NCBI GenBank assembly: GCA_024349725.1
Contig: AP026064.1
Span: 642,592 to 706,591 of the forward strand
Source of the DNA: Arsenophonus endosymbiont of Ceratovacuna japonica
GTDB lineage: Bacteria > Pseudomonadota > Gammaproteobacteria > Enterobacterales > Enterobacteriaceae
Length of the DNA: 64,000 bases
Direction: 5' to 3'
Positions 5,536-47,844 of this stretch are shown one piece after another. A program made the position numbers and the translations under genes. Under the pieces are notes generated by a model. The model was not told where the DNA came from and made no database searches. It worked only from the letters and a program-made list of their open reading frames with translations. Position 1 is the stretch's first letter, and every line of letters begins with the position of its first letter.

Positions 5536-6666
5536 ATGATAAAACTTAATATTTTTGCAATAGTTATTTCAGTATTATTAGCTGGCATAGCAAACGCAGC
5601 TGAAATTTATAATAAAGATGGCAATAAATTAGATTTATATGGTGAAGTTAATGTTAATCATTTTTTTGGTAAAAATGATAATAATAATAAAATAGATGAC
5701 TCTAATGTGCATATTGGTATAAAAAGTAATACTAAAATTTCTGATCAATTAATTGGTTTTAGTAATTTTGAATTAGAAAATAAAACTAATAAAAGTAAAT
5801 TAGAACATCAAAATATAAATAGTTTATCTTATATTGGTGTAAAAATTGCTGATTTTGGTTCATTAGATTATGGTCATAACTATAATATTCTTTATGATAT
5901 TAATTCATGGGTTAATATAACGCCTATTTATGCAATAAAATCTATATCAAATGTTAATAATTACTTAATTAATCGTAATTATAATTTATTAACTTACCGT
6001 AATACTGATTTCTTTGGTATGATAGATGGTTTAAATTTTGCCATACAATATCAAATCAAAAATATAGAAATAGATAAAATAAGTAATAAAACTATTTTTA
6101 ATAATAAAAATAGTTTTGGTTTATCCGCTAACTATAATATTGGTTGGGGTATTACATTAGGTGCTGGTTATTCTAAATTTAATAGTATTTTTGATAATCA
6201 ACAAAAAGATATTAACAATCATATTAGTAATAATAATGATGAAGGTTGGAATGTTGGTATTAAATATGATGCTAATAATCTTTATTTGGCTGCAATATAT
6301 AGCAAATTTAATAATGTAATTAAATCTGATAATGTTGAAGATTTAATGAATAATGATTCAGCATATATAGTTAATAAAACTAAAGATTTTAAGTTAGTTG
6401 GTCAATATCTATTTAATGAAATAGGTTTAAAACCATCAATTATTTATGTGCAATCTAAAGGTAAAGATTTAACTGCCACTTCTTATTTACATAAACAAAA
6501 TTTAATAAAATATATTTCTTTAGGAGCTTCTTATTATTTTAATAAAAATATAATTGCAGTTGTTGATTATAAAATTAACTTAATTAATAATAATGATAAC
6601 TTTAATAATAAATATGATATTATTAAAGATAATTTAATTAATTTAGGTTTAGTTTATAAGTTTTAA
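5536..6666 (+). CDS. ompF: General diffusion outer-membrane porin, OmpF/OmpC family
   Basis: Trimeric beta-barrel porin that lets small solutes cross the outer membrane. The 376-residue precursor begins with a 21-residue signal peptide, predicted to be cleaved before AEIYNKDGNKLDLYG, the classic enteric porin N-terminus. The internal segment YRNTDFFGMIDGLNFAIQYQ matches the family, and the chain ends in phenylalanine, as expected for recognition by BamA. Extracellular loops are rich in Asn and Lys, reflecting AT drift. Position next to asnS matches E. coli ompF; assignment to OmpF rather than OmpC rests only on synteny. aspC, which normally follows, is missing. Its persistence matters because lipid A genes in this window are broken. 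Confidence 0.9.
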   Translation: MIKLNIFAIVISVLLAGIANAAEIYNKDGNKLDLYGEVNVNHFFGKNDNNNKIDDSNVHIGIKSNTKISDQLIGFSNFELENKTNKSKLEHQNINSLSYIGVKIADFGSLDYGHNYNILYDINSWVNITPIYAIKSISNVNNYLINRNYNLLTYRNTDFFGMIDGLNFAIQYQIKNIEIDKISNKTIFNNKNSFGLSANYNIGWGITLGAGYSKFNSIFDNQQKDINNHISNNNDEGWNVGIKYDANNLYLAAIYSKFNNVIKSDNVEDLMNNDSAYIVNKTKDFKLVGQYLFNEIGLKPSIIYVQSKGKDLTATSYLHKQNLIKYISLGASYYFNKNIIAVVDYKINLINNNDNFNNKYDIIKDNLINLGLVYKF

Positions 6667-9841: not shown

Positions 9842-10535
9842 TTTAATTATTCCAAAAATTAATTAATTTAATAAAATTATTACATAAAATATTAAAATAA
9901 AATTAAATTTTTATTTAATTATATAATAGTAAATAATTGTATATTATTTAATGAATTTATCATTTAATTAAATAATATTAATAAAAATTTTAATTAATAT
10001 AAAATTTAACTAATAAAATAAAATATGTATTTTATAATAATTTAATTATTATAAAATACATATTATTTTTATAAATATCTTTAATTATTAATATAGTTTA
10101 AAATATTAAGTATTTTAATTGTTAAATTAATTATAAAATTATATTTTTAGTAAAAATTATTTTTATCTTATTTTTATGTTTTTATAAAAATTAAAATTTA
10201 ATGATTTTTAATTTACTAAATTTTATGTATTTTTTTAAATAATTAATATTTTTATTTTATATAATTAAATAATTTAATTTATTATAAATTATTTTACTTT
10301 TAATTATTTTAATATAAATATTATTATAATTAATAAAAGTATTTAAATAAATAGTTTAATATTTAATACTTTACTTATATTATTATGATAATTAATTATA
10401 AAAATATTATTATTATTTTGTAATAAAAGTAAATATTATTTAAACAAAATACTAAAAATATTATAATTAAAAATCTTACTAATATAATAAAATTTATTTT
10501 ATATAAAAATATTATTATTAAATTTTACTTAATTT
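9842..10535. other. Gap where bamC (nlpB) would lie
   Basis: 694 bp of A/T-rich DNA between purC and dapA, without a frame resembling the BamC lipoprotein or any other protein. In E. coli bamC sits exactly here. BamC is a non-essential accessory of the BAM complex, so its loss is compatible with the intact bamA in this window. Confidence 0.5.
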
Positions 10536-16892: not shown

Positions 16893-18755
16893 TTATTTAT
16901 AAATTTCTATATTAGCATTATCACGTAAATTTAATATTAGTGATTCTATAATCATATTGCTAAACATAGTTTTAAAACGTTTTGAAAAAACTTTTAATTC
17001 TTTTTGCGTTGGTTTTACTGAAATAACTTCAATTAATTTAATAATAATTAAATTATTTTTAGAGTCTTTAATGCTAAAATATGTAGGTATATTTTTTTTA
17101 GGAATAGGCATTTGAAAAATAGCTTCAGATAAAGAATCATTTTTTCCAAAACGATTAATAATTTTAATATTACTAAAATTAATACCTAATTTTTTTAAAG
17201 CATCTTCACTTGTTTTATATTTCAATAAAGTTAGTAATTTATTATTATCTTCTTCCATATTTTTTATTGCTTTATTCATTTTAACTAATTTAAAAACCAT
17301 TTTTATTACTTGATTAAATGGTTTTATTGACTCTGTTTTATATTTTTCAATTCTAATAATAAACGAATTATTATCATCTATATTAATAACATCTGAATTA
17401 ACACCTATTAATCTATTTTTATCTAATAATTTTTTATTAAAAATAAAATTAATAATCTTATCAAATTTTATTTCTTTAGGAATATTATTACGATTGAACC
17501 AATCAGTAGTTACTGCTTTAATATTGATAGCATTTTCTACAGCTTTTAAAGATTCATTTTCATTCAGTGCTATACGACTTGCAGTTTTTTGTAATAAATA
17601 AAACTCATTAATTGTTTTTTTATTTTTTATATCATAAATAATCTCATTTTTTACAGATTGTAAAGATTTTACTATTTTAGGTTTTATATCATCAAGTCGA
17701 AATATAATATATCCATTATTTGATTTTATTATATTAGAAAACTCTCCTTTTTTAGTCAAATTAGCAATAAGAATTTCATTTGGCGTAAAATTATCTTCCA
17801 TCCAACCAAGAGAGCTACAATTTACTATATTAAATTTATATATAGATTTTTCCTTAATTAATTGCTTACAATCAACTCCATTACTTAAAGATTTAAAAAT
17901 ATAATCTATATCTTTTTTTGTTGCTAATTTAATCATGCTATAATGTTTTTTTTCATTCTGCGTATAACGAGAAATATTTTTATTATAATATCTTTTAATT
18001 TCTTCTTCTTGAATTACTTGATTCTTATACTTATTAGATGAATTTAATTTAATATAACTAACTTTTACCTGCTCTGGGGAAACAAAATTATTTTTATGAA
18101 TATTATAATAATCTTGTAATTCTTTATTTGTTACTATTTGTTTAGATTGATATTTTATAAATGATAAATTTGCTATTTTTACTTTGCGTTTTTGTAAAAA
18201 AAATTTAGCATAATAATTAACTTCTTCAGGTAAAACAAATTCATCAGTAATATAAATTTTACTAAGTTTACTATTAATTAAGTTTTGCTTTATTTCTTGC
18301 ACTAAATCATTAATATTAATATTATATGTGGATAAAATAGATAAATATTTTTTATTATTAAAATGACCATTTGTTTGAAATATGGACATATTATAAATAT
18401 GTTGTTTAATTTTATCATCAGTAATTATTAAACCTAATTTATTTGAGTATTGATTAAATAATATTACATTAATTAATCGTTCTAAAGCTTGATGATTCAA
18501 CATATTAATAACTTGATTACTACTTATAATTTTAGTAAATTGATCACCAAGTAGTTCCTGTAATTCTTGTTTCTCTTGTTGAAAAGCTTGATTTAATTGA
18601 TCATGACTAATTGTTATATTATTTACTTTTGCAATATAATTATTTGAATTATTAACTAAATAACCGCTAATACCAGTAAGTAAAAAAGATAAAATAATAA
18701 TTATAAATACTATTTTTAGTACAGTACTGTTCGCTGCTGCACGTAACTTATCCAT
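16893..18755 (-). CDS. ppiD: Periplasmic folding chaperone PpiD
   Basis: Inner-membrane-anchored chaperone that helps newly exported proteins leave the Sec translocon. One N-terminal membrane segment (about residues 13-33) precedes a SurA-like helical region. A parvulin-type domain follows around 258-363 (GWMEDNFTPNEI to NGYIIFRLDD), then a C-terminal domain. The start is set at the ATG reading MDKLRAAANS, which matches E. coli MDSLRTAANS, giving 620 residues. A TTG two codons earlier has a better spacing from GGAGAG and cannot be excluded; a GTG further upstream at 18776 lacks a ribosome binding site. It is well conserved in length, so probably functional. Confidence 0.92.
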   Translation of the reverse strand: MDKLRAAANSTVLKIVFIIIILSFLLTGISGYLVNNSNNYIAKVNNITISHDQLNQAFQQEKQELQELLGDQFTKIISSNQVINMLNHQALERLINVILFNQYSNKLGLIITDDKIKQHIYNMSIFQTNGHFNNKKYLSILSTYNININDLVQEIKQNLINSKLSKIYITDEFVLPEEVNYYAKFFLQKRKVKIANLSFIKYQSKQIVTNKELQDYYNIHKNNFVSPEQVKVSYIKLNSSNKYKNQVIQEEEIKRYYNKNISRYTQNEKKHYSMIKLATKKDIDYIFKSLSNGVDCKQLIKEKSIYKFNIVNCSSLGWMEDNFTPNEILIANLTKKGEFSNIIKSNNGYIIFRLDDIKPKIVKSLQSVKNEIIYDIKNKKTINEFYLLQKTASRIALNENESLKAVENAINIKAVTTDWFNRNNIPKEIKFDKIINFIFNKKLLDKNRLIGVNSDVINIDDNNSFIIRIEKYKTESIKPFNQVIKMVFKLVKMNKAIKNMEEDNNKLLTLLKYKTSEDALKKLGINFSNIKIINRFGKNDSLSEAIFQMPIPKKNIPTYFSIKDSKNNLIIIKLIEVISVKPTQKELKVFSKRFKTMFSNMIIESLILNLRDNANIEIYK

Positions 18756-19911
18756 AATCAAAATATTACTCTCCACTTAAATTAAAAATATATAATTATT
18801 ATAAATTATTTTTAATTTTAAAATATATCATTTCTTATATATATTAATATAAATAATATTATTTATATAAATTATTTTTATTATTATAAAATAATATTTA
18901 AAAATTATTATATTTAATATATTATTTTAATAATATTTATAATTTTATATTATTAATTTTTTATTTTTATTTTATATATAAATTTTATTAAATTAATAAA
19001 ATTTTATTTTTAATTTATTAAAATATTTAATATTAATAATTATAATGATATTAAAAATTTATTTAAATACTAATTATTTTATATATATCACAATTAGATA
19101 AATTTAAAAAATATTATATAAAAATAAAATTTTTATATTAAAATATTATTAATTAAAATTAAATATTTGTATAAATTTTTAAATGTAAATATAATTATAT
19201 TAATAATAAAAATATATTTTTTTAATAAATTAACAATTTATCATAAAATAGATTATTATTTATTTATTTATATATTAATTTATATATAAATTAATAATTA
19301 TAAAATAAAATATAATTATTTATTATAAAAAATATTATAATATAAAATATAATTTATATTAATTAATTTTATTATTTTAATAAAATTAATTAATATATAA
19401 TTAACATAAAAATAAAAAAATTTAATAAATAAATTATTATATTTATTATATAATTTTATAAAATTTATATTATAAAATTCAATTATATAAATAATATTAA
19501 AATATTATTTATATATAATAATATATTATAATTAATTAATTTATATAAATAAAATATAAATATTTTATTTGATTTTTTAAATTTACTATTGACTTTTATT
19601 ATTATAAATGTTTATATAAAATTTATAATAAAAAATTATTCAAAAAATAATAAATATATTTAAATCTTAAATAAAATATAAAATAATATTTTATTTAAAA
19701 TATTATTTTATATTTTTTAAAACTATATATTATAAAATAATATTTATATTATTTTTATTAATTAGTATTTCTATTTTTACTAATATTTATAAGAATAATT
19801 AAATATTTTTACTTTATTAAAAATTTAAGTATAAAAATATCAATAAAATAAAAAATAATTAATTTATAATTTAATTTAAATTAAATTATAAATTATAATA
19901 ATATAATAATT
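18756..19911. other. Non-coding gap between ppiD and brnQ
   Basis: About 1.15 kb of A/T-rich DNA between two divergently transcribed genes. I see no frame resembling a protein and no tRNA. Promoters for both ppiD and brnQ must lie here. The length would fit one or two erased genes (in E. coli lon and hupB are upstream of ppiD), but no trace is recognisable. Confidence 0.45.
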
Positions 19912-25020: not shown

Positions 25021-25027
25021 TATTATA

Positions 25028-25035: not shown

Positions 25036-25039
25036 TCAA

Positions 25040-25840: not shown

Positions 25841-25906
25841 ATTTATCTCCTATAATCACATAATATTAATAAATATATTTGAATTATTAAACATATAATT
25901 AAAAAA

Positions 25907-26881
25907 TTAGTTTTTTGCTTTTTTAATAAGAGTTAACATATCTAATTTATTATCATTAGATACTTTTCGTGCCTCTAGTTCAATTCCTAATTTTGATAAT
26001 TTATTAAAAGCATTAATATCATCATCATCAATTGAAATTGCATTATTAACTTGAATTTTTCCATCACGATATGCCATACCACCTATATTAACATATTTTA
26101 TTTTAACTCCACCTTCTACAATACGTAAAACATCTGTTGGATTAGTAAATAATAACATTACACGTTCACCAGAATATTTAGGATTATTATATACACGAAT
26201 ACATTTTGCTATATCAATTACATGCGCAGTAACACCTGGTGGCGCAACTTGCTTTAATAAAGTTGAACGAACATGATCTTTAGCTACCTCATCACTTACT
26301 ACAATAATACGTTTAACTTTTGTCTCTTTAGTCCAACAAGTAGCTACTTGACCATGAATTAAACGATCATCAATTCTAGTTAGTGCAATAAACATATGAC
26401 CATGTTTTGATGTTTTGTTAACTAATGGTGTTATAGGAGTTGGTGATATAGATAAATTTTGTGATTTATTTATAATTTGCAAATTATTTAATACTTTAAT
26501 TTCACTTCGTCCAGTTTCAATAGCTGTGTTTACTAATTCGCTAAAAGTAGGATTATCATCTCGTAGTAATAATGTAGCAACTAACATAGGAATATTAACA
26601 CCAGTAACGATATTATATTTCTTTTTATCTTTGCTTTCAATAATTCTACTAGCAGCATTAAATGGACTACCTCCCCATATATCTACTAAAAATAACACAC
26701 CTTGAAATATATCAAGCTCATTAAGCTTTTTATTATATTTTTCAATTAATGTGTCAACATTTTCACCTGGAACAAAATCAATATAGGCAATATTTTTTTG
26801 TTCTCCAATTAACATTTCAGCGGTCATTAATAACTGTTTAGCAGCAACACTATGAGTGCTAATTATAATAGCTACACTCAC
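25907..26881 (-). CDS. manX: Mannose PTS cytoplasmic component IIAB
   Basis: Phosphoryl-transfer subunit that takes phosphate from HPr and passes it to the incoming sugar. It has 324 residues, E. coli 323. The IIA domain carries the phosphorylated H10 (IIISTHS) and the IIB domain carries H176 in RIDDRLIHGQVAT; an interdomain linker rich in Ser, Thr and Pro lies around 140-160. The start is a GTG preceded by AAGGGGAAG; it aligns with the E. coli N-terminus. EI and HPr must be encoded outside the window. Both active-site histidines are intact, so the system is probably working. Confidence 0.95.
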   Translation of the reverse strand: MSVAIIISTHSVAAKQLLMTAEMLIGEQKNIAYIDFVPGENVDTLIEKYNKKLNELDIFQGVLFLVDIWGGSPFNAASRIIESKDKKKYNIVTGVNIPMLVATLLLRDDNPTFSELVNTAIETGRSEIKVLNNLQIINKSQNLSISPTPITPLVNKTSKHGHMFIALTRIDDRLIHGQVATCWTKETKVKRIIVVSDEVAKDHVRSTLLKQVAPPGVTAHVIDIAKCIRVYNNPKYSGERVMLLFTNPTDVLRIVEGGVKIKYVNIGGMAYRDGKIQVNNAISIDDDDINAFNKLSKLGIELEARKVSNDNKLDMLTLIKKAKN

Positions 26882-26982
26882 TTTCTTCCCCTTAGAAGTA
26901 AATTAAATAATAAAATAATTATTAAAATGTACTCTCCGTAAGAGATGGATACAATTAAATAATTAACAATATAAACATTTTT

Positions 26983-27030
26983 TATATTATAAATGATTAC
27001 CTATAATTACAATTAATCATTTATAATATA
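26983..27030. promoter_or_regulatory. 17-bp perfect inverted repeat upstream of manXYZ
   Basis: Arms at 26983-26999 and 27014-27030 are exact complements around a 14-nt spacer that includes ACCTATAATTAC. The structure lies about 100 nt upstream of the manX GTG. It could be an operator, an mRNA leader fold, or a plus-strand terminator (TTTTATCATTT follows on that strand). It does not resemble the Mlc/NagC consensus known to control man genes in E. coli. Confidence 0.4.
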
Positions 27031-27510
27031 TTTTATCATTTAAATACAATAAAATATATCTTAGTTATAAGGAAATTTAAATATTAGTAAATATATTTAT
27101 AAAAATATAAATTTTAAATTAATTTAATTATATTATAATTAATTGATATATTTTATATAAATTCTATCTTATATATAAATAATATTTAATTTATTAAATA
27201 TAATAATATATTAAAAAAATAAATAAATTATTATTAATTAATAAAAATGTAATTTAAAAATCTATGTAAATTAATTATTTTATACATTAACTATTTAAGT
27301 AATGTAAAAATTTTATTAATATTTATAGTAAGTATTATTTAGAATTACATAATAATAATATAAAAATATTATATTATTAAAATAAAAGTTTTATAAAATA
27401 ATTTTTATAATTATACTTTTATATATTATATTTTTACTAATTCTATAAAATTAAATAATAATTTACTAATTAATTAAAATTATTAATAAATATTTTATTA
27501 AATTAAATTT

Positions 27511-27706
27511 TAATATTTTTATTATTATTAATATATAAATATTACATATTATTGAATTTATATATTTTATTTTATAATTTATTATAATATTTAATATGAA
27601 TAATTTAAAAACATTTAATTATAATTTACTATATAATTTAAAATAATTAAATATATTAAAATTTAATAATATTTAAAATTAAAACAATTTATTTTTTAAT
27701 AAAAAA
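27511..27706. repeat. Direct repeat, left copy, block 1
   Basis: This 196-bp block aligns over its whole length with 29401-29596 on the same strand. Within it, 51 nt at 27623-27673 match 29512-29562 with one mismatch; outside the core the two copies have diverged but keep the same order of short matches. Confidence 0.6.
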
Positions 27707-27717
27707 TAAATTGTTTT
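27681..27717. terminator. Perfect 17-bp-stem hairpin in the gene desert
   Basis: AAAACAATTTATTTTTT at 27681-27697 is followed after three bases by its exact reverse complement at 27701-27717. The A-rich start and T-rich end give a terminator-like shape on either strand. No gene ends nearby, so it may be the leftover terminator of an erased gene. It overlaps the edge of the left repeat copy. Confidence 0.45.
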
Positions 27718-28154
27718 ATAAATATTCTATAATAAAAAATATTTTATCTTATAATGAATATTATTTATTAATTATATTTTATACTTCATTATAATTATTT
27801 ACTAAAAATTATACAATTAAATATAAAAATATTAATATAAAAAATAATTTTGTTATTAATTAAAAATTATTAATAATACATTATAAATAATAATTTAAAT
27901 TTATATGCTAAATTAATAAATTTCATTAAAAAATAATACAATATTTATTTAAATATTAACTATTTATTTTATTATATAAAATTTTATAAAATAAATATAA
28001 ATTAATACTTTTAATAAAATATATAATATTAATTATAATACAATATTATTAATATAATATATCATCAAAATAATAATATAAATATTATATTAATAAAAAG
28101 TAACTTTTATCTATACTGTAAAATAACTAGATATTTATTTTAATTAAAAATATG

Positions 28155-28392
28155 ATTATTTAATTTAAAATAAATAATAATAAAATAATAATACTAATTA
28201 TTAATCAATACTTAAAAAATTAAAATATAACTATGATAATAAAAAATATATAATAATTAATTAAATTTTTCTAAATATATAATTATAAAATACTATTATA
28301 AATATTTAAATACATAACACATTTAATATTAGTAATATACTAAATATAAATTTACTTAAATTTTTAATAAAAAACTAATTAATAGAATAATT
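28155..28392. repeat. Direct repeat, left copy, block 2
   Basis: This block aligns with 29603-29834, for example both carry AAAATATAACTATGATAATA followed by AAAAATATATAA/G and TTAATTAAATTT. It is separated from block 1 by about 450 bp that have no counterpart in the right copy. Confidence 0.6.
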
Positions 28393-29104
28393 GTAAATTT
28401 TTACTAAAATAATTGAATATATATTATAAAATTATTTTTAATAATACATTTAATTACTATATGATAAAGTTAATTTTTATATAATAAAAATTTATATTGT
28501 ATAAAATTTATAATAATAATTATAAATTTTATTCACTTAATAATATTACATAATATAATAAAAAAATAATTATAATAATCAGTTAATATATATAATAAAT
28601 AAAAAATTATATAAAAAAATAAATATTAACAAATTGATAATATATTTAATATTTTTATAATTAAAATTTATCTTTATATATTAAAATTATAAATATAAAA
28701 ATAATAATATTATATTTAATAATCTATGATTAAAATAAATTATATATTAATAATTATAAACTAAAATTATTCATAAACTTTATAATATTTATAAAAATTA
28801 TAATTATACTAATTTATTAATATTAATAAAGATTAAAATAAAAAATATTTATATTATATTATTAATTTAAAATTTAAATTATATAAAAAATTAAATAAAT
28901 ATTTTTATTTGAAATACTTATAACTAATGAGTATAATAAATAAAAAATATATTTATAATGTAAAATATAAAATAAAATAATTATTTTAAAAATAAATTAA
29001 TATATATTCACTTTTTGTTTAAAAAAAATATAAAACTTTTTAATAATACAAATATTTTAAATACTATAATAAAATATCAATTTTAATAAAAAAATGGAAA
29101 ATTA

Positions 29105-29254
29105 ATGTTTTTAAAAACTCCTATATTGAATTATCAGCAACAAAAAGAAGCTGTTAATCGTATACATAAATTAATAGCTAATGGAATGAGCAGTAAAGAA
29201 GCAATTACTTTAGTTGCAAAAGAAATACGTATAAAATACACTACTAAAAAATAA
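29105..29254 (+). CDS. yoaH: UPF0181 family protein YoaH
   Basis: Small conserved enterobacterial protein of unknown function. The 49-residue frame contains the family core EAVNRIHKLIANGMSSKEAI and TLVAKEIR, close to E. coli YoaH (59 residues), which has [20 protein letters not shown]. It ends about ten residues early, losing the acidic tail. A weak TGGAA precedes the ATG at about 7 nt. In E. coli yoaH lies next to pabB, not far from manXYZ; pabB is absent here. It is the only gene in a 5.6-kb desert, flanked by a pair of direct repeats. Survival of the core without stops implies it is still selected. Confidence 0.85.
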   Translation: MFLKTPILNYQQQKEAVNRIHKLIANGMSSKEAITLVAKEIRIKYTTKK

Positions 29255-29400
29255 TTATATATATTATATTTTTATATCATTTAACATAAAATTAATATTA
29301 TTATTGTTAATAATAATTTTATATTAAAAATTAAAAATATAATTATTATAAAATAATTATATTTTAAAAAAATAATATTATTTTTTTTAAAATTATATAA

Positions 29401-29596
29401 TAATATTTTATTATTATTAATATATAAGTAACATGTATTATAAAATTTATATATATTATTTTTTAGCTTATCATAATGTTTAATATAAATGCTTTAAAAT
29501 TATTAAATTTTAATTTACTATATAATTTAAAACAATTAAATATATTAAAATTTAATAATATTATAAATCAAAGTAATTTGTTATTTTTTATTAAAA
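29401..29596. repeat. Direct repeat, right copy, block 1
   Basis: Counterpart of 27511-27706, lying 1.89 kb downstream on the same strand. The best-conserved part is 29512-29562. The palindrome seen in the left copy is not preserved here, though the segment TTATTTTTTATTAAAA remains. Confidence 0.6.
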
Positions 29597-29602
29597 CTAT
29601 TT

Positions 29603-29834
29603 TTAAATTTAAATTAAAAACAATAAAAATAATAATATTAATTATTGATTAACATTTAAATAGTTAAAATATAACTATGATAATAAAAAATATATAAGAA
29701 TTAATTAAATTTTCTAAATGCATAATTATAAAGTATTATTATAAATATTTAAATAAATAATATATTTAATATTAATGATATAATAAATATAAATTAACTT
29801 AAATTCTGAATAAAAATTGATTAATAAAATAATA
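29603..29834. repeat. Direct repeat, right copy, block 2
   Basis: Counterpart of 28155-28392. Here block 2 follows block 1 directly, so the right copy spans about 434 bp while the left copy spans about 882 bp. Confidence 0.6.
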
Positions 29835-31507
29835 ATTACATTAATTTTTATAAATATTACTAAATATTAAAATAAACTTATTATCTTTATTAAGATAATA
29901 ATTTAAATATAATATACTTTTAAAATATTTATTATTATATATTAAATTATGTATTAATAAATTATATTTTTATAATATAATTTATTTAAAATTAAAATAT
30001 GTATATAAATATAAATTAAAAACATATTTTAATTTAATAGTAAAAAAAAATATTAATAAATTTTATTAAGTTTAAATATTATTCATTTAAACAAAATAAT
30101 TTTTAAATTAAAATAATAAAATATTTTAAAATAATTATCATTTATTTATTATTAACTTTACTAAAATAATTATAATTTATTCATTTAAACTTTTCATATT
30201 TAATAAATAATTAAAATTTAAATTAATATTATTAAATATTAAATATTTTATTTAAATATCTTAAAAATAAGATATATAATTATTTTAATATACATAAAAA
30301 TATTTATATAAATATTACATTTATAAAATACAATATTCAATATGTATATATTTAAATATTATATTAATTATATTAATTACAAGCAATATTAATTATTAAT
30401 AAATAATTTTATTATTAATATTTTATAAATATTAATAATAAAATATTTTAATTATTATTTTATTTAAATTTATCATTTATCTTCTAAATATTAATATTTT
30501 ATAAAAATATAATTAAATAAAATAAAATAATATTAATAAAACTAATTTATACATATATTAAATTAATTATAATTATTTTCATCAAATTAAATAAATTTAT
30601 CTATTTAAATAACAATAATTATATAATTTTAAATTAAAATTTAGTAAATTTATTTAATAATAAATAATAAAATAAATATTAAAATTCATACTTAATAAAT
30701 ATATTAAAACTAAAAATAAAAATTTTAATAAAAATAAATTAAAAATTATAAAATATAAAAAATATTTATATTAAACATTAATATATTATTTAAAAAATAA
30801 TAATTAATTAAAAAATTAAACATATTAGTATTTAAGATAGTTAATATTGATATACAAATATAACACTAATAACATTTAGTAATTATCATACATTAAAAAT
30901 TTAAAATTTTAATATTATAAAAGATAATCAAATAATAACATAAACAATTATATTAAAATTATTTTATATTTATTATAATTATAATAAATATTATATTTAT
31001 AGATATTTCATTATTTATAATAATATTAAAAACTATAATATTCACTAAACTTAAATAAGAACATCAACATACTATTGTGAATAAAAGAATTATTTTAATA
31101 TTTACTAAATATTATTATAAAGCATTTAATTTAGATAAAATTTCTCTATTAATATTTTTAATAAACATTTAAATTTACTTTATTATAATCATAATATTTT
31201 TTAGAAATTATATCAATAAATTTATTAATATTAAAAATAAAAAAGAAAGTAAGATATATCTAAAAAATTATTTTTATTTATAAAAATACAAAATTTTATA
31301 TTATAATATTAATTCGTGACAATATTAAATTAAAATATAGATCTGTAAAATTCATAATTAAAAATACTAGTAAGAAAAAATTAGTTAACTTAATGTTTAA
31401 TTTTTTATATTGGTTTAATTAATAATGTTAAAATACAGTTATAAAACTAATTAAAAATTATATAATAGTTCCTTATTATTAATTTACGTAATAATATAAG
31501 TAATTAC

Positions 31508-32220
31508 TTAAGTAAAGCTATACTATTATTAAGTTTATTTATTTAAATAGTCTAATCGTTCAAATATATGATAAAAATAAAAAAATCAATCAAAATATAT
31601 ATAATGATAATATAATTTATTATAAAAAACCATTTATGATATTAATTAATCAATTAATCACTATAGTATAAGAAATTTTTACATATTCAATTCAAAATTA
31701 TTGTTATTCATTAATTATTAGAGAATCATATTTTAGTAAAGGACTGTTTAATAATACTATCCTTCAAGTCATATTTATAATTATATGTTGCATCCAGAAT
31801 AGATTGATTTAGGTTATGTCTAATATATTATTCAAAAATTTTATCGTATTAACGGTAGCAATATACAATGTAAAGATTTAACACTTGATATTATTATGAT
31901 AACTAATATAAATTTAAATAAAAATAGAAAAAGATATTGAAGATAATATTTTATCTTGAAATGATATTAAATTAATTAAATATGATATTTTTAATAAAAA
32001 TAATTAATATATTTTTAATTTAAAAATTAATTATAAATAATATATATCAAGAAATATTGAATTTAAATATATTAAAAAACATTATATATTATAATAAAAT
32101 TAAATTAAATAAAAAATATAATTTCATTTAATTTCCTAAAAAAAGAAAAAAGAAAATAAAAAATATAATATTCTTAAACTACATCTTATTAATTAACATT
32201 TAATTCAAAAAGGAAATACA
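31508..32220 (+). pseudogene. rpoC: Decayed rpoC-like 3' segment (RNA polymerase beta' C-terminal part)
   Basis: No open frame exists, but translating the plus strand with frame changes gives pieces that follow the C-terminal part of beta' in order. YYKKPFMILINQLITIV (31618 on) resembles EARRPKEPAILAEISGIV. LIIRESYFSKG resembles the VREGDYVKKG barrel. YIIQKFYRINGSNIQCKDL (from 31824) resembles [34 protein letters not shown] (from 32170) resembles GLKENVIVGRLIPAG. The distance from the PHDIL-like to the LKEN-like piece is 412 nt, against about 390 in E. coli rpoC. In-frame stops and shifts show it is dead. The alignment is by eye only. A functional rpoC must exist elsewhere, so this would be an extra or acquired copy. 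Confidence 0.45.
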
Positions 32221-32533
32221 CTATTAAACAATAAATAATTTACCTAAAAATTATAAATTGCCAGACCAATACTATGACAAAGAAATTAAAATTATCATTA
32301 ATTTTATATATTTATAAAAAACAATAAATTATAAGTAAAAATAATTAAAATATAAGTATTATTATATATATAATTATATATAAATATATATATTAAATAA
32401 TTAAGTTAAATTAATATATATTATAATATTTATTATAAATTATTTAATATTACAATATCAAATATAATGAATTTAATATATATAATATAATTATTTTAAT
32501 TAAATTATCTTAAGTAAATAATTAAATAATCAT
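32221..32533. other. Non-coding stretch after the rpoC-like remnant, downstream of tilS
   Basis: 313 bp between the decayed segment and the 3' end of tilS. The first 80 bp still look less random than typical spacer (for example AATTGCCAGACCAATACTATGACAAAG region near 32255-32283) and could be the last part of the same remnant. The rest is almost pure A/T. Confidence 0.4.
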
Positions 32534-39077: not shown

Positions 39078-40203
39078 TTATTTATTTTTACATGATTTTA
39101 ATACAGATTTTTCTGCTTGTCTATTATCATTACAACGTATATTTTTATATAATTTTAAAAAACTATACTTTAATTGTTTAGTTTTATTTTTATCAAAAAG
39201 TAGTAATTTAAGAGAATCAGATAATTTATTAGGTTTGCAATTATGTTAAATAAATTCTTTAACTAAATTTTTTCCTGATAATAAATTTAGCAATGAAATA
39301 AAAGTAATTTTAATAATTCTTTGAATCAACCAATAAGTTATTGGTTTTATTCTATAAGATACTACTATTAGACACTTAGCTAACATATATTCTAAAGAAG
39401 CTACACCAGAAACTAACAAAGTTACATCAGCAGCAATCATAACTATTTGAGCTTGTTTATTTATTATTTTATAAGTTGTTTGTTAATAATAGGAATATAA
39501 ATTTTTATATAAGGAAAATTTTTTATTAAAATTTGAGAAGCTTATAAAAATTTTGCACTTAACATTTTTATTTCAGTAAAATAACTACCAGATAAAATAG
39601 CTAAACATTTAGAATTAGGACTTTATATTAAGTTTTTTCTAGCATATTATTTATTTAATTGTAATGATATATTATTAGTCATAGTATAATCAATAAAATT
39701 ACATGAAATACCATAATAATAATAATTTTTTTTAAATTTAAATAAAGCAAGAACTAAATCAGTACCTCTTTTATTTTAAAAGCTCTATATTTTCTCTATT
39801 CCCAAATAGAAAAACTAACATAATGAATAGTTTTGATTCTTATTTATTTTAATTTTTTTTTCAAAATAAATATTAAAATCAGGTGAATCTATGCCAATAA
39901 ATACATCAAATTGTAATTTAATAAATCGTCTTATTAAGTTAATTCTAATTTTTAATAATCGTAGTAATCGAGTTAATACTTCATTAATATTAATTAAAAA
40001 AAAAGATCTTTTATTTTACACCATGATTTACAACCTTCTATTTGCATTACTGGTCTAAACACACCAACAAAAAATACATTAGGAACTTGTTATTTTAAAG
40101 AACTAATAAGACCAGCTCCTAATATATTATCTAATGTTTCTTCAGAAACTATACAAATAGTTAAAGGTTTTTGTTGGGTGATTAATTGATTATTATTAAC
40201 CAC
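39078..40203 (-). pseudogene. lpxB: Lipid-A-disaccharide synthase pseudogene
   Basis: LpxB joins UDP-diacylglucosamine and lipid X to make the lipid A disaccharide. The remnant keeps the whole extent of the gene, from a GTG at 40203 preceded by GGAG to a TAA at 39078. The start reads QKPLTICIVSEETLDNILGA, like E. coli [20 protein letters not shown], but a TAA interrupts codon 38. A later piece (39246-39440) reads VTLLVSGVASLEYMLAKC, like E. coli AALLASGTAALECMLAKC. Several frame changes and stops lie between. The active-site glycine/serine region is altered (ETSGDI to ETLDNI). The gene is clearly dead but recent enough to be aligned. Confidence 0.93.
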
Positions 40204-41043: not shown

Positions 41044-41496
41044 TTATGTTTCTTGGCTACGAGCACACATAATCGTTGCTTCACAAACAATTTTTTTATC
41101 TACTGTTGCAATACCTTTAAATCGCGTTAAACCACGTTTAGTTTTAATAAATGTTATCTCAAAAATCATCTGATCACCAGGTTGAACTGGATGTTTAAAT
41201 CTTGCTTCATCAATACCTGCAAAATAATAAAGCTCACCTGGTTCTAATTTACCAATACTTTTAAAAGCTAAAACACCAGCAGCTTGAGCCATAGTCTCTA
41301 AAATTAATACACCAGGAAATATTGGTTTTCCAGGAAAATGACCTTGAAAAAATGGTTCATTAAAAGAGACATTTTTTATAGCACGTATAAATTTATTTTC
41401 TTTAAAATCCAATACACGATCAATTAATAAAAAAGGATAACGATGTGGTAATAAACCTAAAATTTCTTCTATATCCAGAGTATGTTTATCACTCAT
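41044..41496 (-). CDS. fabZ: 3-hydroxyacyl-[acyl-carrier-protein] dehydratase FabZ
   Basis: Dehydrates beta-hydroxyacyl-ACP in the fatty acid elongation cycle. The 150 residues compare with 151 in E. coli. Catalytic H53 ([11 protein letters not shown]) and E67 ([10 protein letters not shown]) are present. It is the only intact gene in the lpxD-fabZ-lpxA-lpxB stretch, with both neighbours broken. Selection has therefore kept fatty acid synthesis while releasing lipid A synthesis. A G/C-rich hairpin lies just upstream. The gene has no internal irregularity. Confidence 0.96.
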
Positions 41497-41604: not shown

Positions 41605-42631
41605 TTAGTTATCCTTACCAAATATTTTAAATTCTAGTATCTTTAGACGCTTAGCTATTTCATTAATACTTAATATTAAAGCAGCTGTTTTTCGCCAAAT
41701 TTTATTTGGCTGTAAAGGAATGCCTGAAGAGTATATACCAGACTCATTAATTAAACACATTACCATTCCCATTCCAGTTATAGTAACTTTATCACAAATT
41801 TCCATATGTCCATTAATTACACTAGCACCATCAATCATACAATATTTACCTACTTTTAAACTACCAGCCATAACAACTCCACCAGCAATAGCAGTATGAT
41901 CACTGATATTTACATTATGATCAATATGACATTAATTATCAATAATGACACCATTATTGATAATAGTATCATCTAATGCACCACGATCAATTGAAATACA
42001 AGCTCCAATTTCAACATAATTACCAAGAATAACTGTACCTAATTGAGGTATTTTTATCCATTTACCTTTTTCATTAGCATAACCCAAACCATCATAACCA
42101 ATAACTGTTCCAGATTGAATTAAATAATGTTCACATATTTCAACATTATGATAAATTGAAACATTAGCCCATAAACGAGTAAATTGACCAATCTTAACAT
42201 TTTTACCAATAAAATAACCAGTACTAATAATAACCCTGATTTTCTAATACAACACCTGACTTAATAATAGAATTAGCACCATAAAACATCTTTACTTAAT
42301 TTAATATCTTCAGCAATAACTGCAGAATAGTGAATATTTTCAGCATGTTTAAGTGTAGTATCCCAAATTTTAGCTAATCCAACATAAGCAAAATAAAAAT
42401 TTTTAACAATTAAAGTAATTTATTTTATTAACTATTAGATTATTATGTTTTAATACTACAGTAATAGATTTACATTTTTCTAATTACATTAAATAGCGTT
42501 TATATGATAAAAAAGTAATTTGTCCTTTTTTCTAAATGTATAAGTGAGATAACATTAATAATAGCATTACCATTACCATATAGCTGTGCATTAAATTACT
42601 GTGCTAAATCAGCTAATCGAATAAAAAATAT
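41605..42631 (-). pseudogene. lpxD: UDP-3-O-acylglucosamine N-acyltransferase pseudogene
   Basis: LpxD performs the third step of lipid A synthesis. The 3' part (41605-41871) is an open piece reading [20 protein letters not shown] to [18 protein letters not shown], very close to E. coli LpxD. The 5' end reads [19 protein letters not shown], like E. coli [20 protein letters not shown], with a TAA where the glutamine codon was. The ancestral start codon position (42629-42631) now reads ATA. Further stops and frame changes lie between. It keeps its place between skp and fabZ. The gene is dead. Confidence 0.93.
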
Positions 42632-42634
42632 CTA

Positions 42635-43126
42635 TTATTTAACCTTCTTAATAACCATATCTGTAATATTTTTTATATTATAATTATTTTCCGGATAAAG
42701 AATTGCATTTAAATTAATTACAAAATCATAATGATCTTTCTTAGCAACTTCTTTAGTTAAAATTTTTATAATTTGCAAAATTTTATTACGTTCTTCTTGT
42801 TGACGACGTTGATTATCTTGTTCAAATTGTTGTGCTTTTTTAAGAAAATCTGTTCGTTTAGACTCAAATATTTGAAAATCTTTTTCATTAAGTTTAACAT
42901 TGTTTTTTTGTAATATTTGTGCTTGAGACTGCAAATCTTTTTCCATATTTTGTAACTCATTAGCTCTTCCTTGAAATTCTTTTTCAAGTTTTTTTGATAT
43001 TGATTTTTTATTCGCTATATCCTGAAAAATTTCACTAACATTAACGATAGCAATTTTTTCTGCATAAGAATGTGTAAATATAAATAAAATTAAACTTAAA
43101 ATTACTTTACATAATATTTTTTTCAC
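42635..43126 (-). CDS. skp: Periplasmic chaperone Skp (OmpH)
   Basis: Trimeric holdase that keeps outer-membrane proteins soluble in the periplasm until they reach the BAM complex. The 163-residue precursor (E. coli 161) has a signal peptide ending in THSYA, predicted cleavage after residue 22, then EKIAIVNVSEIFQ. A long charged Lys/Glu/Gln-rich coiled-coil region forms the tentacles (about 45-125). It lies 58 bp after bamA and immediately before the lpxD pseudogene. Its C-terminus ends two bases before the lost lpxD start. Confidence 0.93.
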   Translation of the reverse strand: MKKILCKVILSLILFIFTHSYAEKIAIVNVSEIFQDIANKKSISKKLEKEFQGRANELQNMEKDLQSQAQILQKNNVKLNEKDFQIFESKRTDFLKKAQQFEQDNQRRQQEERNKILQIIKILTKEVAKKDHYDFVINLNAILYPENNYNIKNITDMVIKKVK

Positions 43127-43184
43127 ACAGCCTCCTTATTATTTCTTATTTATTTATATACTAATTAATTAATTTAATTAACTT

Positions 43185-45590
43185 TTACCACATACTGCCA
43201 ATATTAAATTGAAACTCTTCAAATTTATCACCTTCATAATACTTTATTGGCTTAGCATAAGAAAAAATTAACGGTCCAAGAGGTGATATCCACTGTAATG
43301 AAATTCCTGTAGAAATTCTAATATTAGTTGATTTTCCATAATCAGGCATACCTACTTTCCAATCTATTGGGGTATTATTCCAATTTGAATCCCAAACAGT
43401 ACCAGCATCAACAAAAAAAGAAATTCTAATTAAATTAACATATTTATCATCAATAAATGGAGTTGGCATAATTAATTCTAATGAAGCAGTTGCTGTTGCA
43501 TTACCTCCAATTGCATCCATTGATGGATTATTAATTTTTGGTTTTATTAGATCATTTTTATCTTCAAGATAAATTGCTTTAGGGCCAATATTATTAGAAT
43601 TAAAACTACGAACTGTACCAATACCACCTGCATAAAAATTTTCATAAAATGGTAACTCTTTACCACCAATACCATCTCCATAACCTAACCGTGCCCGACC
43701 AAATAATATCCATGTTTTATCTTCATTAATTGGGTAATATTTTGACATATTAAACCAAATTTTATAATATTGATTGTTAGAATCTAAAATAGTAATTTTA
43801 CTATTTAATGAAGTTTTGTTTCCAGATATTGGCAAAATACTACGATCTAAATTATTATAAGTCCATCCTAAATTAATAGTTATATCATCAGTATTATAAT
43901 ATATATTTTTATTAAAATTAAGTTTTTCACCCATACTTTTTAAGTAACGCCACATACCAACTTGAGCTTTCATATCAAATAAAGAATTATGAATAAATCC
44001 TACTCCAATTCTAAACGAATTATTTTCATTAAAAGGAAAAGTTAATATACTATCAAAACCATATATTTTGTTATTATAATGTGAAAAATCAATGCTTTTA
44101 GTACTAAAATTATTATAAAATAATTGCCCACTTAAACTCACTTCATTAGTAATAAAATAAGGATTAATAAATGATAATTTTGCATAAGTTGAGTAATCAT
44201 TTTTACTAGCACTAATATCAACAGAATTACCTGTACCTAACCAATTTTTTTGTTGAATACCAACTTGAAATCTAATACCATTTTCAGTACTAAAACCAAC
44301 ACCAAAATTCATAAAACCAGTATTATATTCTTTAACTTTATAAATAACATGAACTTGATTAATTGTACCTGGTATACGTTGTATTTGAACATTTACTGAT
44401 TCAAAAAAACCAGTGCGTTTTAATCTCTCTTTTCCTAAATAAACTAAATTATTATTAAACCAAGAACTCTCCATTTGTCGCATCTCACGACGTAAAATAA
44501 AATCCTTACTAAAATAATTTCCAATAAAAATAATTTTACGAACATAAAAACGTACACCAGTATTAATATTTATATATAATTTAACAGTATTATTTTTATC
44601 ATTAATTTCATATTTAGTAGAAATACTAGAATATATATAACCATAATTACTAAGTAAATCTTTAATTTTATTCTCCATATTAATAATTTTAGTGCCATTA
44701 AAAAATGAAAAAAGTTTAATGTTTGCAATTAATTTTTTAATTTCATTAAAATAATTTATAATTTTACCATTTAATTTAATATCTGATATAATATATTTAT
44801 TTCCTTCATTTATATTAATAATAATATAAATATTTTTTTTATCAGGGGTTAAATTAATATGGATTGAATTAATATTAAATTTTATATAACCTCTATCTAA
44901 ATAAAATTTACGTAATACTTCTAAATCACTTATAAATTTTTGTTTTTGATATTTTTTATCAATAATGAAATTCCACCATTGTATATTATCATGCAATTGA
45001 AAATGTTTTACTAATTCAGTTGTACTAAACATTTTATTACCAATAATATTAATTTGATTAATTTTAGCAGAAATACCTTCAATAATGATTAATTTTAAAG
45101 AAACATAATTATATAATAACGGTGTTATAATAATTTTAACTTTAGCATTATATTTACCAATACTATAATAAAAATCTTCAATAACTTTTTTAATATTATA
45201 TATTTTTACTATATCAAATACTTGACCGGCTTTAATATTCAAAATTTCAAAATTTTTCTTTAATAAATTGTCTTTAATTAATTTATTTCCATAAAATGTA
45301 ATATTTTTAATAATTGGTCGCTCTTTTACTTGAATTATTAAAGTTCTTTTATCACGTAAAATTTTAACATACTCAAAATTACCAATTGATAATAAAGATT
45401 TAATAGTATTACTTATATCATTATTATTAATTTTATCTCCTACATGAATTGGCATACTTAATAACATTTTACCAATCGTCACTCTCTGAAGACCTTTAAA
45501 ATTAATATCTTGTAATACAAAATTATCTAAACCATTTACATTAATGCTAATAAATAAAAAAAATACTACAAATAACTTTTTTATTACCAT
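43185..45590 (-). CDS. bamA: Outer-membrane protein assembly factor BamA
   Basis: Omp85-family barrel that inserts beta-barrel proteins into the outer membrane. The 801-residue precursor (E. coli 810) has a signal peptide ending near NVNG, five POTRA domains (LQDINFKGLQRVTIG to about residue 420), and a C-terminal barrel ending in FNIGSMW with the expected terminal aromatic. The loop-6 motif is VRSF instead of VRGF. The extracellular loop after it (IYLEDKNDLIKP) is much shorter than in E. coli. It lies between rseP and skp. The gene is intact although LPS genes nearby are not. Confidence 0.95.
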   Translation of the reverse strand: MVIKKLFVVFFLFISINVNGLDNFVLQDINFKGLQRVTIGKMLLSMPIHVGDKINNNDISNTIKSLLSIGNFEYVKILRDKRTLIIQVKERPIIKNITFYGNKLIKDNLLKKNFEILNIKAGQVFDIVKIYNIKKVIEDFYYSIGKYNAKVKIIITPLLYNYVSLKLIIIEGISAKINQINIIGNKMFSTTELVKHFQLHDNIQWWNFIIDKKYQKQKFISDLEVLRKFYLDRGYIKFNINSIHINLTPDKKNIYIIININEGNKYIISDIKLNGKIINYFNEIKKLIANIKLFSFFNGTKIINMENKIKDLLSNYGYIYSSISTKYEINDKNNTVKLYININTGVRFYVRKIIFIGNYFSKDFILRREMRQMESSWFNNNLVYLGKERLKRTGFFESVNVQIQRIPGTINQVHVIYKVKEYNTGFMNFGVGFSTENGIRFQVGIQQKNWLGTGNSVDISASKNDYSTYAKLSFINPYFITNEVSLSGQLFYNNFSTKSIDFSHYNNKIYGFDSILTFPFNENNSFRIGVGFIHNSLFDMKAQVGMWRYLKSMGEKLNFNKNIYYNTDDITINLGWTYNNLDRSILPISGNKTSLNSKITILDSNNQYYKIWFNMSKYYPINEDKTWILFGRARLGYGDGIGGKELPFYENFYAGGIGTVRSFNSNNIGPKAIYLEDKNDLIKPKINNPSMDAIGGNATATASLELIMPTPFIDDKYVNLIRISFFVDAGTVWDSNWNNTPIDWKVGMPDYGKSTNIRISTGISLQWISPLGPLIFSYAKPIKYYEGDKFEEFQFNIGSMW

Positions 45591-45620: not shown

Positions 45621-46973
45621 TTAAATATGAGAAAAATCATTAAAAAGTGCAAATCCCATTAATAATGTTAATATAATAACACCAATATGATAACTACAGT
45701 CTTGTACAAAATCAGATACTGGACTTCCTTTGATTTTTTCAATTAATAAAAAAAGTAAATGTCCACCATCTAATGCAGGTAAAGGAAACAAATTAATAAC
45801 CCCTAAATTAACACTAACTAATGCAATAAACATTAAATAATATACTAATCCAGATGCAGCTGAAATACCAGCTCCTTTTGCAATAGAAACTGGACCGCTA
45901 AGATTATTAATTGAAATATCTCCAATAATTAATTTACCTATAATACTTATTGTTAATATTATTAATTTATAAATTTTATCTATTGACTTATATATAGAAT
46001 AAAATAAACCATATTGTTTAGTAGTTTTATATTTATCTGAAATTGGTTTTATTAATAATTCAAATCCAACAAATCCAATTTGTTGTCCTTTAGATGTTAA
46101 TTTTACTTTAGGAGTTAATGTTAATTGTTTCTGTTTACCATCTCTTTCAATAGTTAATAGCAACATGTTATTAGGACTTTTTTTAACAAAAAAATCAAAT
46201 GGATGCCAAATATCTATTATTTGTTCGTTTACTTTTATAATCTTATCTCCTTTTTGCAAACCTGATAATGCTGCATCTGTACCAGGTTTAATATTACTTA
46301 CAATAGAGTCGTATTTAATACCAACAGGTATTATACCTAAAGATAATAATGGATCTTTATTTTTTAAATCAAAATGACATTTGTGTAAATTAATAATTTT
46401 TTTTATTGTTCTAATATTTCCAATAGGTAAAACTTCTATATTTAACTCTTTATAACCTATTTTGCTCATTAAAGCTAATTTCACTTCATTCCAATCATGT
46501 GTTTTTACGTTATCTATTGATTTTATTTCCATGCCAGGTAAAATATTTGCATAAGCAGCAATTGAATTTGATTGAATATCTTGTATAATAGGTCGCACAG
46601 AAGGTACACCAATTATGAAAACTAACCAATAAGCAAATATTGATAATAAAAAATTAGCTATTGGCCCAGCACTAATAACTGCAGCTCGATGATTTATTTT
46701 TTGATTATTAAAGGTATAATTTCGTTTTTCTGGAGAAATAAAAGATGATTTATGATCTAACATTTTAACATAACCACCTAAAGGAATCATAGAAATAACA
46801 AATTCTGTACCATAACGATCAACTTTACGCCATAACGTTTTACCAAAACCAATAGAAAATCGTTCAACATAAATACCATAATGTCTAGCTACCCAAAAAT
46901 GACCAAATTCATGTACTATAATTAAAATACATAATGTAATAAAAAACGCAGATATATTCCAAAAAAATATCAT
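45621..46973 (-). CDS. rseP: Site-2 zinc metalloprotease RseP
   Basis: Inner-membrane M50 protease that cuts anti-sigma factor RseA and cleans up signal peptides. The start is set at the ATG at 46973, preceded by AAAGGTG at 7 nt and aligning with E. coli MLSFLWDL; an upstream in-frame ATG at 47018 would overlap cdsA and lacks this support. The protein is then 450 residues, the E. coli length. HEFGH lies at residues 21-25 in the first membrane segment. Two PDZ domains occupy the periplasmic centre, and NLFPLPALDGGHLLF provides the third zinc ligand. Confidence 0.94.
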   Translation of the reverse strand: MIFFWNISAFFITLCILIIVHEFGHFWVARHYGIYVERFSIGFGKTLWRKVDRYGTEFVISMIPLGGYVKMLDHKSSFISPEKRNYTFNNQKINHRAAVISAGPIANFLLSIFAYWLVFIIGVPSVRPIIQDIQSNSIAAYANILPGMEIKSIDNVKTHDWNEVKLALMSKIGYKELNIEVLPIGNIRTIKKIINLHKCHFDLKNKDPLLSLGIIPVGIKYDSIVSNIKPGTDAALSGLQKGDKIIKVNEQIIDIWHPFDFFVKKSPNNMLLLTIERDGKQKQLTLTPKVKLTSKGQQIGFVGFELLIKPISDKYKTTKQYGLFYSIYKSIDKIYKLIILTISIIGKLIIGDISINNLSGPVSIAKGAGISAASGLVYYLMFIALVSVNLGVINLFPLPALDGGHLLFLLIEKIKGSPVSDFVQDCSYHIGVIILTLLMGFALFNDFSHI

Positions 46974-46989
46974 AAATACACCTTTAAAA

Positions 46990-47844
46990 CTAAAAAAATA
47001 ATAAATTAAATTCTGCAAAAATAGGTATAGCAGCTGTTAAACTATCTATTCTATCTAATACACCACCATGTCCTGGAATTAATTGACTACTATCTTTAAT
47101 CCCAGATTGACGTTTAAACATACTTTCCGTTAAATCACCAAATATAGAAATAATTACTACAATAATAGAACAAAATATTAAATTTTTAGATATTAACAAA
47201 TTATTAATAAATAAACTAAATAACAAAGAAACAATTACTGATGTTAACATACCACAAATCATTCCTTCTAAAGTTTTACCAGGAGAAACTTTAGATGCCA
47301 ACTGATGTTTACCAAACAAATAACCAAAAAAGTAAGCGCTAGTATCTGAACTCCATACTAATAACATAACATAAAATATCCACCAAGATCCGGTAAAATT
47401 ATTAATATTATAGTTAATAGCTTTTAATACCATCATTCCACAATAAAAAGGTAAAATAGTTAAAATACCAAATAATATTTTTAATATTATTGATCTAGAC
47501 CAAAATCTAGTAGAAGCAGGAAAAGAAATAACTAATATTATTGCAACTAACCACCAAATTAGTCCAGCATATAAAATATAAATAATTAAAGGTTCTATTA
47601 TTAATAAACTTAAATCTTGAAATAATAATTGTAATCCTAACAAAAAAATACCAAATAAAATAGCACATATAATTCGTTTGCTTTGTGTTATCCAACCAAT
47701 AAATTGACTCCATTCCCAAGCTGCTAATGAACAAAGTATAATAATGGTATAACCAAATAAATTAATCGGTAAAAAAAAAAGTATAGCAATAACTAATGGA
47801 ATAAGTACAAGAGATGTAATAATACGATAATTTAAATCTAACAA
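46990..47844 (-). CDS. cdsA: Phosphatidate cytidylyltransferase
   Basis: Integral membrane enzyme that makes CDP-diacylglycerol, the precursor of all phospholipids. The C-terminal signature SMFKRQSGIKDSSQLIPGHG followed by GVLDRIDSL is intact. The start is probably the TTG at 47844: AGGTG lies 7 nt before it, and the resulting MLDLNYRIITSLVLIPLV aligns with E. coli MLKYRLISAFVLIPVV. A GTG three codons upstream (47853) is part of the ribosome binding site itself. The protein is about 284 residues with roughly eight membrane segments. It sits 12 bp after uppS and 16 bp before rseP. Confidence 0.93.
   Translation of the reverse strand: MLDLNYRIITSLVLIPLVIAILFFLPINLFGYTIIILCSLAAWEWSQFIGWITQSKRIICAILFGIFLLGLQLLFQDLSLLIIEPLIIYILYAGLIWWLVAIILVISFPASTRFWSRSIILKILFGILTILPFYCGMMVLKAINYNINNFTGSWWIFYVMLLVWSSDTSAYFFGYLFGKHQLASKVSPGKTLEGMICGMLTSVIVSLLFSLFINNLLISKNLIFCSIIVVIISIFGDLTESMFKRQSGIKDSSQLIPGHGGVLDRIDSLTAAIPIFAEFNLLFF

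What the first reader, a model, noticed from the sequence alone, without database searches (positions are those of the whole stretch)
42635..45590. Outer-membrane protein assembly kept without lipid A synthesis
Skp, BamA, RseP, PpiD and a porin with intact signal peptide and terminal Phe are all complete although LPS genes are dead. In E. coli, LPS supports porin trimerisation and BamA function. This cell would then run BAM in an outer leaflet of phospholipid or host-derived lipid. BamA shows a matching oddity: its loop-6 motif is VRSF rather than VRGF, and the following surface loop is much shortened.
Basis: partly seen in the sequence, partly recalled or inferred. Interest (0 to 1): 0.6.

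Follow-up and report, generated by a model that had tools for sequence, protein, structure and literature searches.

The report
Outer-membrane protein insertion machine without BamD
An aphid symbiont that can no longer make lipopolysaccharide still inserts at least one porin into its outer membrane, apparently with only two parts of the usual five-part insertion machine, because it has also lost BamD, a part long thought indispensable.

Summary
The genes are as described. BamA, Skp, RseP, PpiD and one OmpC-like porin are intact. lpxA, B, C, D, lpxK, waaA and lptD are relics. By exact length the genome is Arsenophonus of the aphid Ceratovacuna japonica, whose lipid A loss and visible outer membrane are already published. 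The shorter loop 6 (31 residues) is normal for Arsenophonus (31-33). VRSF is real and rare: it is the only one of 27 sites invariant in 44 BamD-positive BamAs that has changed. The main new result is the state of the BAM complex. BamB, SurA, Skp and LolA-E are intact, BamC and BamE are gone, and the bamD slot between rluD and ffh is an ORF-free, 4.8% G+C stretch. RcsF was not found in the 86% of the genome read. This BamA+BamB set is what recent E. coli genetics predicts for survival without BamD. BamA also carries E470K, the published BamD-bypass substitution, plus changes at the other two published bypass sites; all three could be drift. The bamC and bamD slots look older than the lipid A relics, so BAM was stripped first. 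That BAM works in this form is inferred.

The parts
43185..45590 (-). bamA, intact, 801 aa, the only Omp85 protein in the genome
   Evidence: TIGR03303 780.9 bits; single PF01103 match in the whole genome; 54% identical to E. coli BamA over its length
44178..44180 (-). BamA Lys471 (AAA), aligned with E. coli Glu470; E470K is the published BamD-bypass substitution
   Evidence: gap-free local alignment; GAA in five other Arsenophonus; E470K in PMC12421809 and PMC12772190
44100..44102 (-). BamA Thr, aligned with E. coli A496 (a published BamD-bypass site, A496P)
   Evidence: Ala in five other Arsenophonus
44091..44093 (-). BamA Ile, aligned with E. coli A499 (a published BamD-bypass site, A499S)
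   Evidence: Ala in five other Arsenophonus
43605..43607 (-). BamA Ser662 (AGT), the VRSF motif of loop 6, aligned with G662 of VRGF
   Evidence: only change among 27 sites invariant in 44 BamD-positive BamAs; GGT in five other Arsenophonus
42635..43126 (-). skp, periplasmic chaperone, intact, 163 aa
   Evidence: NF008047 full-length match 3.6e-44 (below its curated cut-off) and synteny with E. coli
45621..47018 (-). rseP, intramembrane protease, intact
   Evidence: NF008046 652.7 bits over cut-off 477
41611..42622 (-). lpxD relic, recently broken (26.8% G+C)
   Evidence: 70% identical to A. lipoptenae LpxD with 3 stops and 4 frameshifts
41044..41496 (-). fabZ, intact
   Evidence: TIGR01750 197.7 bits
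40259..41030 (-). lpxA relic
   Evidence: 65% identical with 3 stops and 3 frameshifts
39096..40182 (-). lpxB relic
   Evidence: 55% identical with 6 stops and 4 frameshifts
5536..6666 (+). OmpC-like porin, intact, signal peptide and terminal Phe; the only BAM client found besides BamA
   Evidence: Porin_1 284.5 bits; OmpC model 305.9 bits, below its curated cut-off; OMP screen
16893..18776 (-). ppiD, periplasmic foldase, intact
   Evidence: NF008054 653 bits over cut-off 493
9842..10535 (-). empty bamC slot between dapA and purC (4.8% G+C, no similarity to BamC)
   Evidence: E. coli order dapA-bamC-purC; dapA and purC hit, bamC no hit; G+C

Best explanation
This is a pared-down but working BAM. 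BamA and BamB, fed by SurA, Skp and PpiD and supplied with lipoprotein by an intact LolABCDE route, insert BamA itself and a single OmpC-like porin into an outer membrane that lacks lipopolysaccharide. BamC, BamD and BamE are gone, along with LptD. BamD became dispensable because the substrate that jams BamA in its absence, RcsF, was lost and/or because BamA acquired non-jamming, bypass-like changes (E470K, possibly A496T, A499I and G662S). BamB was kept because either BamB or BamD is needed. Lipid A synthesis decayed afterwards. Shown: gene presence, absence and relics, the residues, and relative relic decay. Inferred: that the machine is active, that RcsF loss or BamA changes permitted BamD loss, and the order of events.
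For: BamD: the TIGR03302 search of the whole genome finds only a sub-cut-off match lying in cpoB, while same-genus A. lipoptenae gives 5.5e-73. The A. lipoptenae BamD protein finds nothing. rluD and ffh are intact on either side of an ORF-free slot of 4.8% G+C. A trace of BamD in the right orientation scores 66 against 43.5 +/- 5.7 in shuffles, reached by 2 of 400, and one of 53 decoy proteins scores as high. BamC: empty slot. BamE: no match. BamB: intact with lipobox, above both NCBIfam cut-offs. SurA intact; LolA-E intact. RcsF: no match in 732 kb including the stretch upstream of proS. E. coli: without RcsF jamming BamD is dispensable, BamB then becomes essential, and BamC and BamE are not needed (PMC12421809). 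E470K is the known bypass allele. All three bypass sites differ here and none differs in five other Arsenophonus. Selection: bamA 22.2% and bamB 25.4% G+C against 3-5% in neutral gaps.
Against: No functional data. E470K could be drift: 4 of 24 conserved Glu became Lys in this BamA, all three sites changing by chance has p of about 0.006-0.016, and some BamD-positive genomes also have changes at all three. RcsF was sought with the E. coli sequence only, without a positive control in Arsenophonus, and 14% of the genome was not read for it. In vitro, BamA E470K alone was inactive (PMC12772190). The bamD trace is barely above chance. BAM genes could be on the way out.
Confidence: 0.68

Rival explanations
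1. One reading: a normal BAM kept while LPS was lost, with BamA loop 6 (VRSF, short loop) adapted to a phospholipid or host-lipid outer leaflet.
For: LPS genes dead; glycine lost in 4 of 15 LpxC-less genomes and 0 of 41 with LpxC.
Against: BAM is not normal: BamC, D and E are gone. Loop length ordinary for the genus. LPS-less genomes with BamD all keep the glycine, 6 of 6. BamC and BamD slots look older than the lipid A relics.
Confidence: 0.1
2. Drift only: VRSF, E470K and the loss of Bam lipoproteins are unselected erosion under strong A+T mutation pressure; BAM is a decaying remnant.
For: Both E470K (GAA to AAA) and G662S (GGT to AGT) are single G-to-A changes; 17% of conserved Glu became Lys and 12% of conserved Gly changed; genome coding density 59.9% (PMC9672956).
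Against: bamA, bamB, skp, surA and porin are intact at 17-25% G+C in a genome whose neutral gaps sit at 3-5%; BamA is as conserved as that of A. lipoptenae, which keeps BamD.
Confidence: 0.17
3. BamD function is carried by another protein, for example the tetratricopeptide proteins CpoB or YfgM, or by a host-supplied protein.
For: CpoB and YfgM are intact and CpoB is the only sub-cut-off hit to the BamD profile.
Against: Both are ordinary orthologues in their usual gene order; no sign of a change of role.
Confidence: 0.05

Closest known systems
Escherichia coli BamABCDE complex
   Same: BamA and BamB orthologues, SurA, Skp, PpiD and Lol route, porin client with C-terminal Phe
   Different: No BamC, BamD or BamE; BamA has K at E470 and S at G662; no LptD, no LPS; only two beta-barrel proteins found
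E. coli laboratory BamD-bypass strains (bamA E470K; rcsF G117R), PMC12421809 and Hart et al. 2020 as cited there
   Same: Growth without BamD; [quoted passage not shown] same E470K residue
   Different: Natural and long-standing loss here, together with LptD and later lipid A loss; RcsF apparently absent rather than mutated
Buchnera aphidicola BAM (PMC3246468)
   Same: Aphid symbiont without LptD/LptE that keeps BamA and porins
   Different: Buchnera from pea aphid, Schizaphis and Cinara cedri is reported to keep BamD and BamE and to have lost BamB, BamC and Skp, nearly the opposite subset
Candidatus Arsenophonus lipoptenae (836,724 bp, same GTDB genus)
   Same: Same gene neighbourhood, similar BamA conservation and loop-6 length
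   Different: Keeps lpxA, B, C, D, lptD, BamB, BamD and BamE, and has IRGF and E470
Fusobacterium nucleatum BAM (named in PMC12772190)
   Same: Outer-membrane protein biogenesis attributed to BamA without the usual lipoproteins
   Different: Different phylum; known here only from that paper's mention, not tested

Membership tests
BamA (Omp85) orthologue | Full-length match to the BamA equivalog profile with POTRA domains and barrel | tested here: met
   TIGR03303 780.9 bits, positions 1-741 of 741
BamA (Omp85) orthologue | VRGF/Y motif in loop 6 | tested here: not met
   VRSF; the other conserved residues R661, F663, F738 and D740 are kept
BAM complex of the proteobacterial type | BamD present with BamA | tested here: not met
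   Whole-genome profile and protein searches and inspection of the rluD-ffh slot
BAM complex of the proteobacterial type | BamB lipoprotein | tested here: met
   NF008351 472.7 bits over cut-off 423, lipobox LLIGC
BAM complex of the proteobacterial type | BamC and BamE | tested here: not met
   Empty dapA-purC slot; no BamE profile match
BamD-bypass state as in E. coli | No RcsF jamming: RcsF absent or BamA variant that resists it | tested here: inconclusive
   No RcsF match in 86% of the genome and an ORF-free stretch upstream of proS; E470K present
BamD-bypass state as in E. coli | Active porin assembly without BamD | not testable with these tools
   Needs protein or genetic experiments
LPS-less Gram-negative outer membrane | No working lipid A pathway | tested here: met
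   LpxC and LptD searched in the whole genome; relics of lpxA, B, D, K and waaA; also published (PMC9672956)

The most novel reading that the evidence does not exclude
A natural replay of laboratory BamD-bypass genetics: in a symbiont lineage BamA fixed E470K (with A496T, A499I and the loop-6 G662S change) and RcsF was lost, so that BamA with BamB alone became the permanent outer-membrane insertion machine for one porin, before the cell gave up LptD and lipid A.
Probability: 0.3. Interest if true: 0.72.

Novelty: new variant of a known kind. Interest (0 to 1): 0.55.

Why it matters
[quoted passage not shown] coli genetics. A natural cell that has apparently run BamA with BamB and without BamC, BamD and BamE, with one porin as the only other beta-barrel protein found, is a clean independent case, and its BamA carries the same residue change that rescues E. 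coli. It also gives a testable order of loss (BamC/BamD and LptD before lipid A) for how an outer membrane is dismantled.

Tried and rejected
Short loop 6 as an oddity: rejected, normal in the genus. VRSF as an LPS-linked change: weakened, since LPS-less genomes with BamD keep the glycine and the only well-conserved BamA that lost it also lacks BamD; but the other three losers (two genera) have very divergent BamAs, so neither association is independent of divergence. E470K as proof of adaptation: rejected, because 17% of conserved Glu sites became Lys and K or R occurs there in three BamD-positive genomes. Broad claim that BamD loss follows LPS loss across symbionts: not made, because in very divergent genomes the BamD profile may miss real BamD (Buchnera is reported to have it). 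MlaA as a marker: uninformative, absent in all 20 genomes compared. Rfam and tRNA scans of the window: nothing. The search for related loci gave only four Arsenophonus relatives. No structure prediction was run: it would not be informative about single-residue changes.

Full report
What the window is. The window lies in a single-contig 853,149-bp genome. That exact length and 18.5% G+C are listed for the Arsenophonus symbiont of the aphid Ceratovacuna japonica (PMC10654098; PMC9672956), and a same-genus genome in the search set has 836,724 bp, the length of Ca. Arsenophonus lipoptenae. The identification rests on these lengths. The symbiont paper already reports that of nine lipid A genes five are lost and four are pseudogenes, and its electron micrographs show an inner membrane, an outer membrane and a symbiosomal membrane. 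It does not mention BamA.

The observation. BamA, Skp, RseP, PpiD, FabZ and an OmpC-like porin are intact. Skp and the NF008287 BamA model fall below their curated cut-offs but match over full length. lpxD, lpxA and lpxB are relics with 3-6 stops and 3-4 frameshifts each. lpxC is broken and lptD is a heavily decayed relic directly upstream of an intact surA. lpxK, waaA, lptF and lptG are fragments; lptA, lptC, lptE, kdsA, kdsC and kdsD gave no match in the 732 kb read. A. lipoptenae and four named Arsenophonus keep the lpx genes.

Loop 6. VRSF is real and differs from the relatives by a single G-to-A change, GGT to AGT. Among 27 BamA sites invariant in 44 BamD-positive genomes it is the only one changed in this protein. 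The loop itself is 31 residues, against 31-33 in the other Arsenophonus and 43 in E. coli, so its length is ordinary. The glycine is lost in 4 of 15 genomes without lpxC and 0 of 41 with it; it is also lost in 4 of 12 genomes without BamD above cut-off and 0 of 44 with it (Fisher p = 0.0013, not corrected for kinship). Among LPS-less genomes, 0 of 6 with BamD and 4 of 9 without have lost it. In E. coli, substitutions near VRGF in loop 6 rescue a strain lacking BamB and BamE (PMC4890855). The change is therefore at least as well linked to lipoprotein loss as to LPS loss; drift is not excluded.

The BAM complex is incomplete. BamB is intact, with a lipobox and above both curated cut-offs. BamE gives no match. 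The bamC slot between dapA and purC holds 694 bp of 4.8% G+C with no similarity to BamC. For BamD the whole-genome profile search finds only a fragment below cut-off inside cpoB, whereas A. lipoptenae gives 5.5e-73, and the A. lipoptenae protein finds nothing. rluD, the divergent neighbour of bamD in E. coli and A. lipoptenae, is intact, and the 938 bp between it and ffh has no ORF and 4.8% G+C. A frameshift-tolerant alignment finds a faint trace of BamD there in the expected orientation (66 against 43.5 +/- 5.7; 2 of 400 shuffles and 1 of 53 decoys reach it). The loss of bamD does not depend on that trace. Among the 21 genomes tested for BamB, this is the only one with BamB but without BamD.

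Why BamD may be dispensable. Kumar and Konovalova (PMC12421809) showed that E. coli survives without BamD if RcsF cannot jam BamA, that BamB then becomes essential, and that BamC and BamE do not matter; BamA E470K also prevents jamming and bypasses BamD. The composition here, BamA plus BamB only, is that predicted set. RcsF was not found in 732 kb (86%) of the genome, including the stretch upstream of proS where it lies in E. coli; the query was the E. coli protein and no positive control in Arsenophonus was available. This BamA has Lys (AAA) at the position of E470 in a gap-free alignment, where five other Arsenophonus have Glu (GAA). The other two published bypass sites, A496 and A499 (PMC13067283), are Thr and Ile here and Ala in all five relatives. 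With 18.5-25% of such sites changed, all three changing by chance has a probability of about 0.006-0.016; the Lys by itself has about 0.17. This is suggestive only, and BamA E470K alone was inactive in vitro (PMC12772190).

Clients and supply. A screen of 405 ORFs in 732 kb for a signal peptide and a terminal aromatic residue with a beta-signal leaves two convincing outer-membrane proteins: BamA and the porin. OmpA, TolC, DegP, RpoE, RseA and RseB gave no orthologous match; LolA, B, C, D and E are intact; no second Omp85 protein such as TamA exists in the genome.

Order of loss. Neutral gaps in this genome have 3-5% G+C. The bamC and bamD slots are at 4.8%, the lptD relic at 8.6-10% with 35 stops, the lpxC and lpxB relics at about 20%, lpxA at 24% and lpxD at 26-27%, the last two still at the level of intact genes. 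Inference: BamC and BamD went first, LptD next, lipid A synthesis last. Intact bamA, bamB, skp, surA and porin, at 17-25% G+C against that background, show continuing selection.

Verdict. Lipid A loss with a retained outer membrane and porin is already published or known from Buchnera (which also reports Buchnera keeping BamD and BamE but not BamB and BamC). The naturally BamD-less BamA+BamB machine is a new variant of a known kind. Its activity, and the role of E470K and of RcsF loss, remain to be tested.

Noticed in passing
window 45621-47018: RseP is intact although rpoE, rseA and rseB gave no match in 86% of the genome, so it is presumably kept for another task such as clearing signal peptides.
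   Followed up: partly
window 26882-32533: A 5.6-kb stretch of 7.9% G+C without a substantial ORF between the manXYZ PTS genes and tilS.
   Followed up: partly
window 24163-26881: Intact mannose/sorbose-type PTS genes (EIIAB, EIIC, EIID) in a highly reduced aphid symbiont.
   Followed up: no
L063 (G121:C6:130001-148000): Another symbiont has no lpxC, lptD, lpxD or lpxB match but keeps an intact lpxA (in L063) and, elsewhere in its genome, BamB, BamD and BamE.
   Followed up: partly
G015 genome (1.0 Mb): Keeps an intact lpxC but shows no LptD profile match, perhaps a genome in which LPS export is lost before synthesis.
   Followed up: no
genomes G005 and G156: Two related 0.5-Mb genomes with lpxC and BamE but only a sub-cut-off BamD match.
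   Followed up: no
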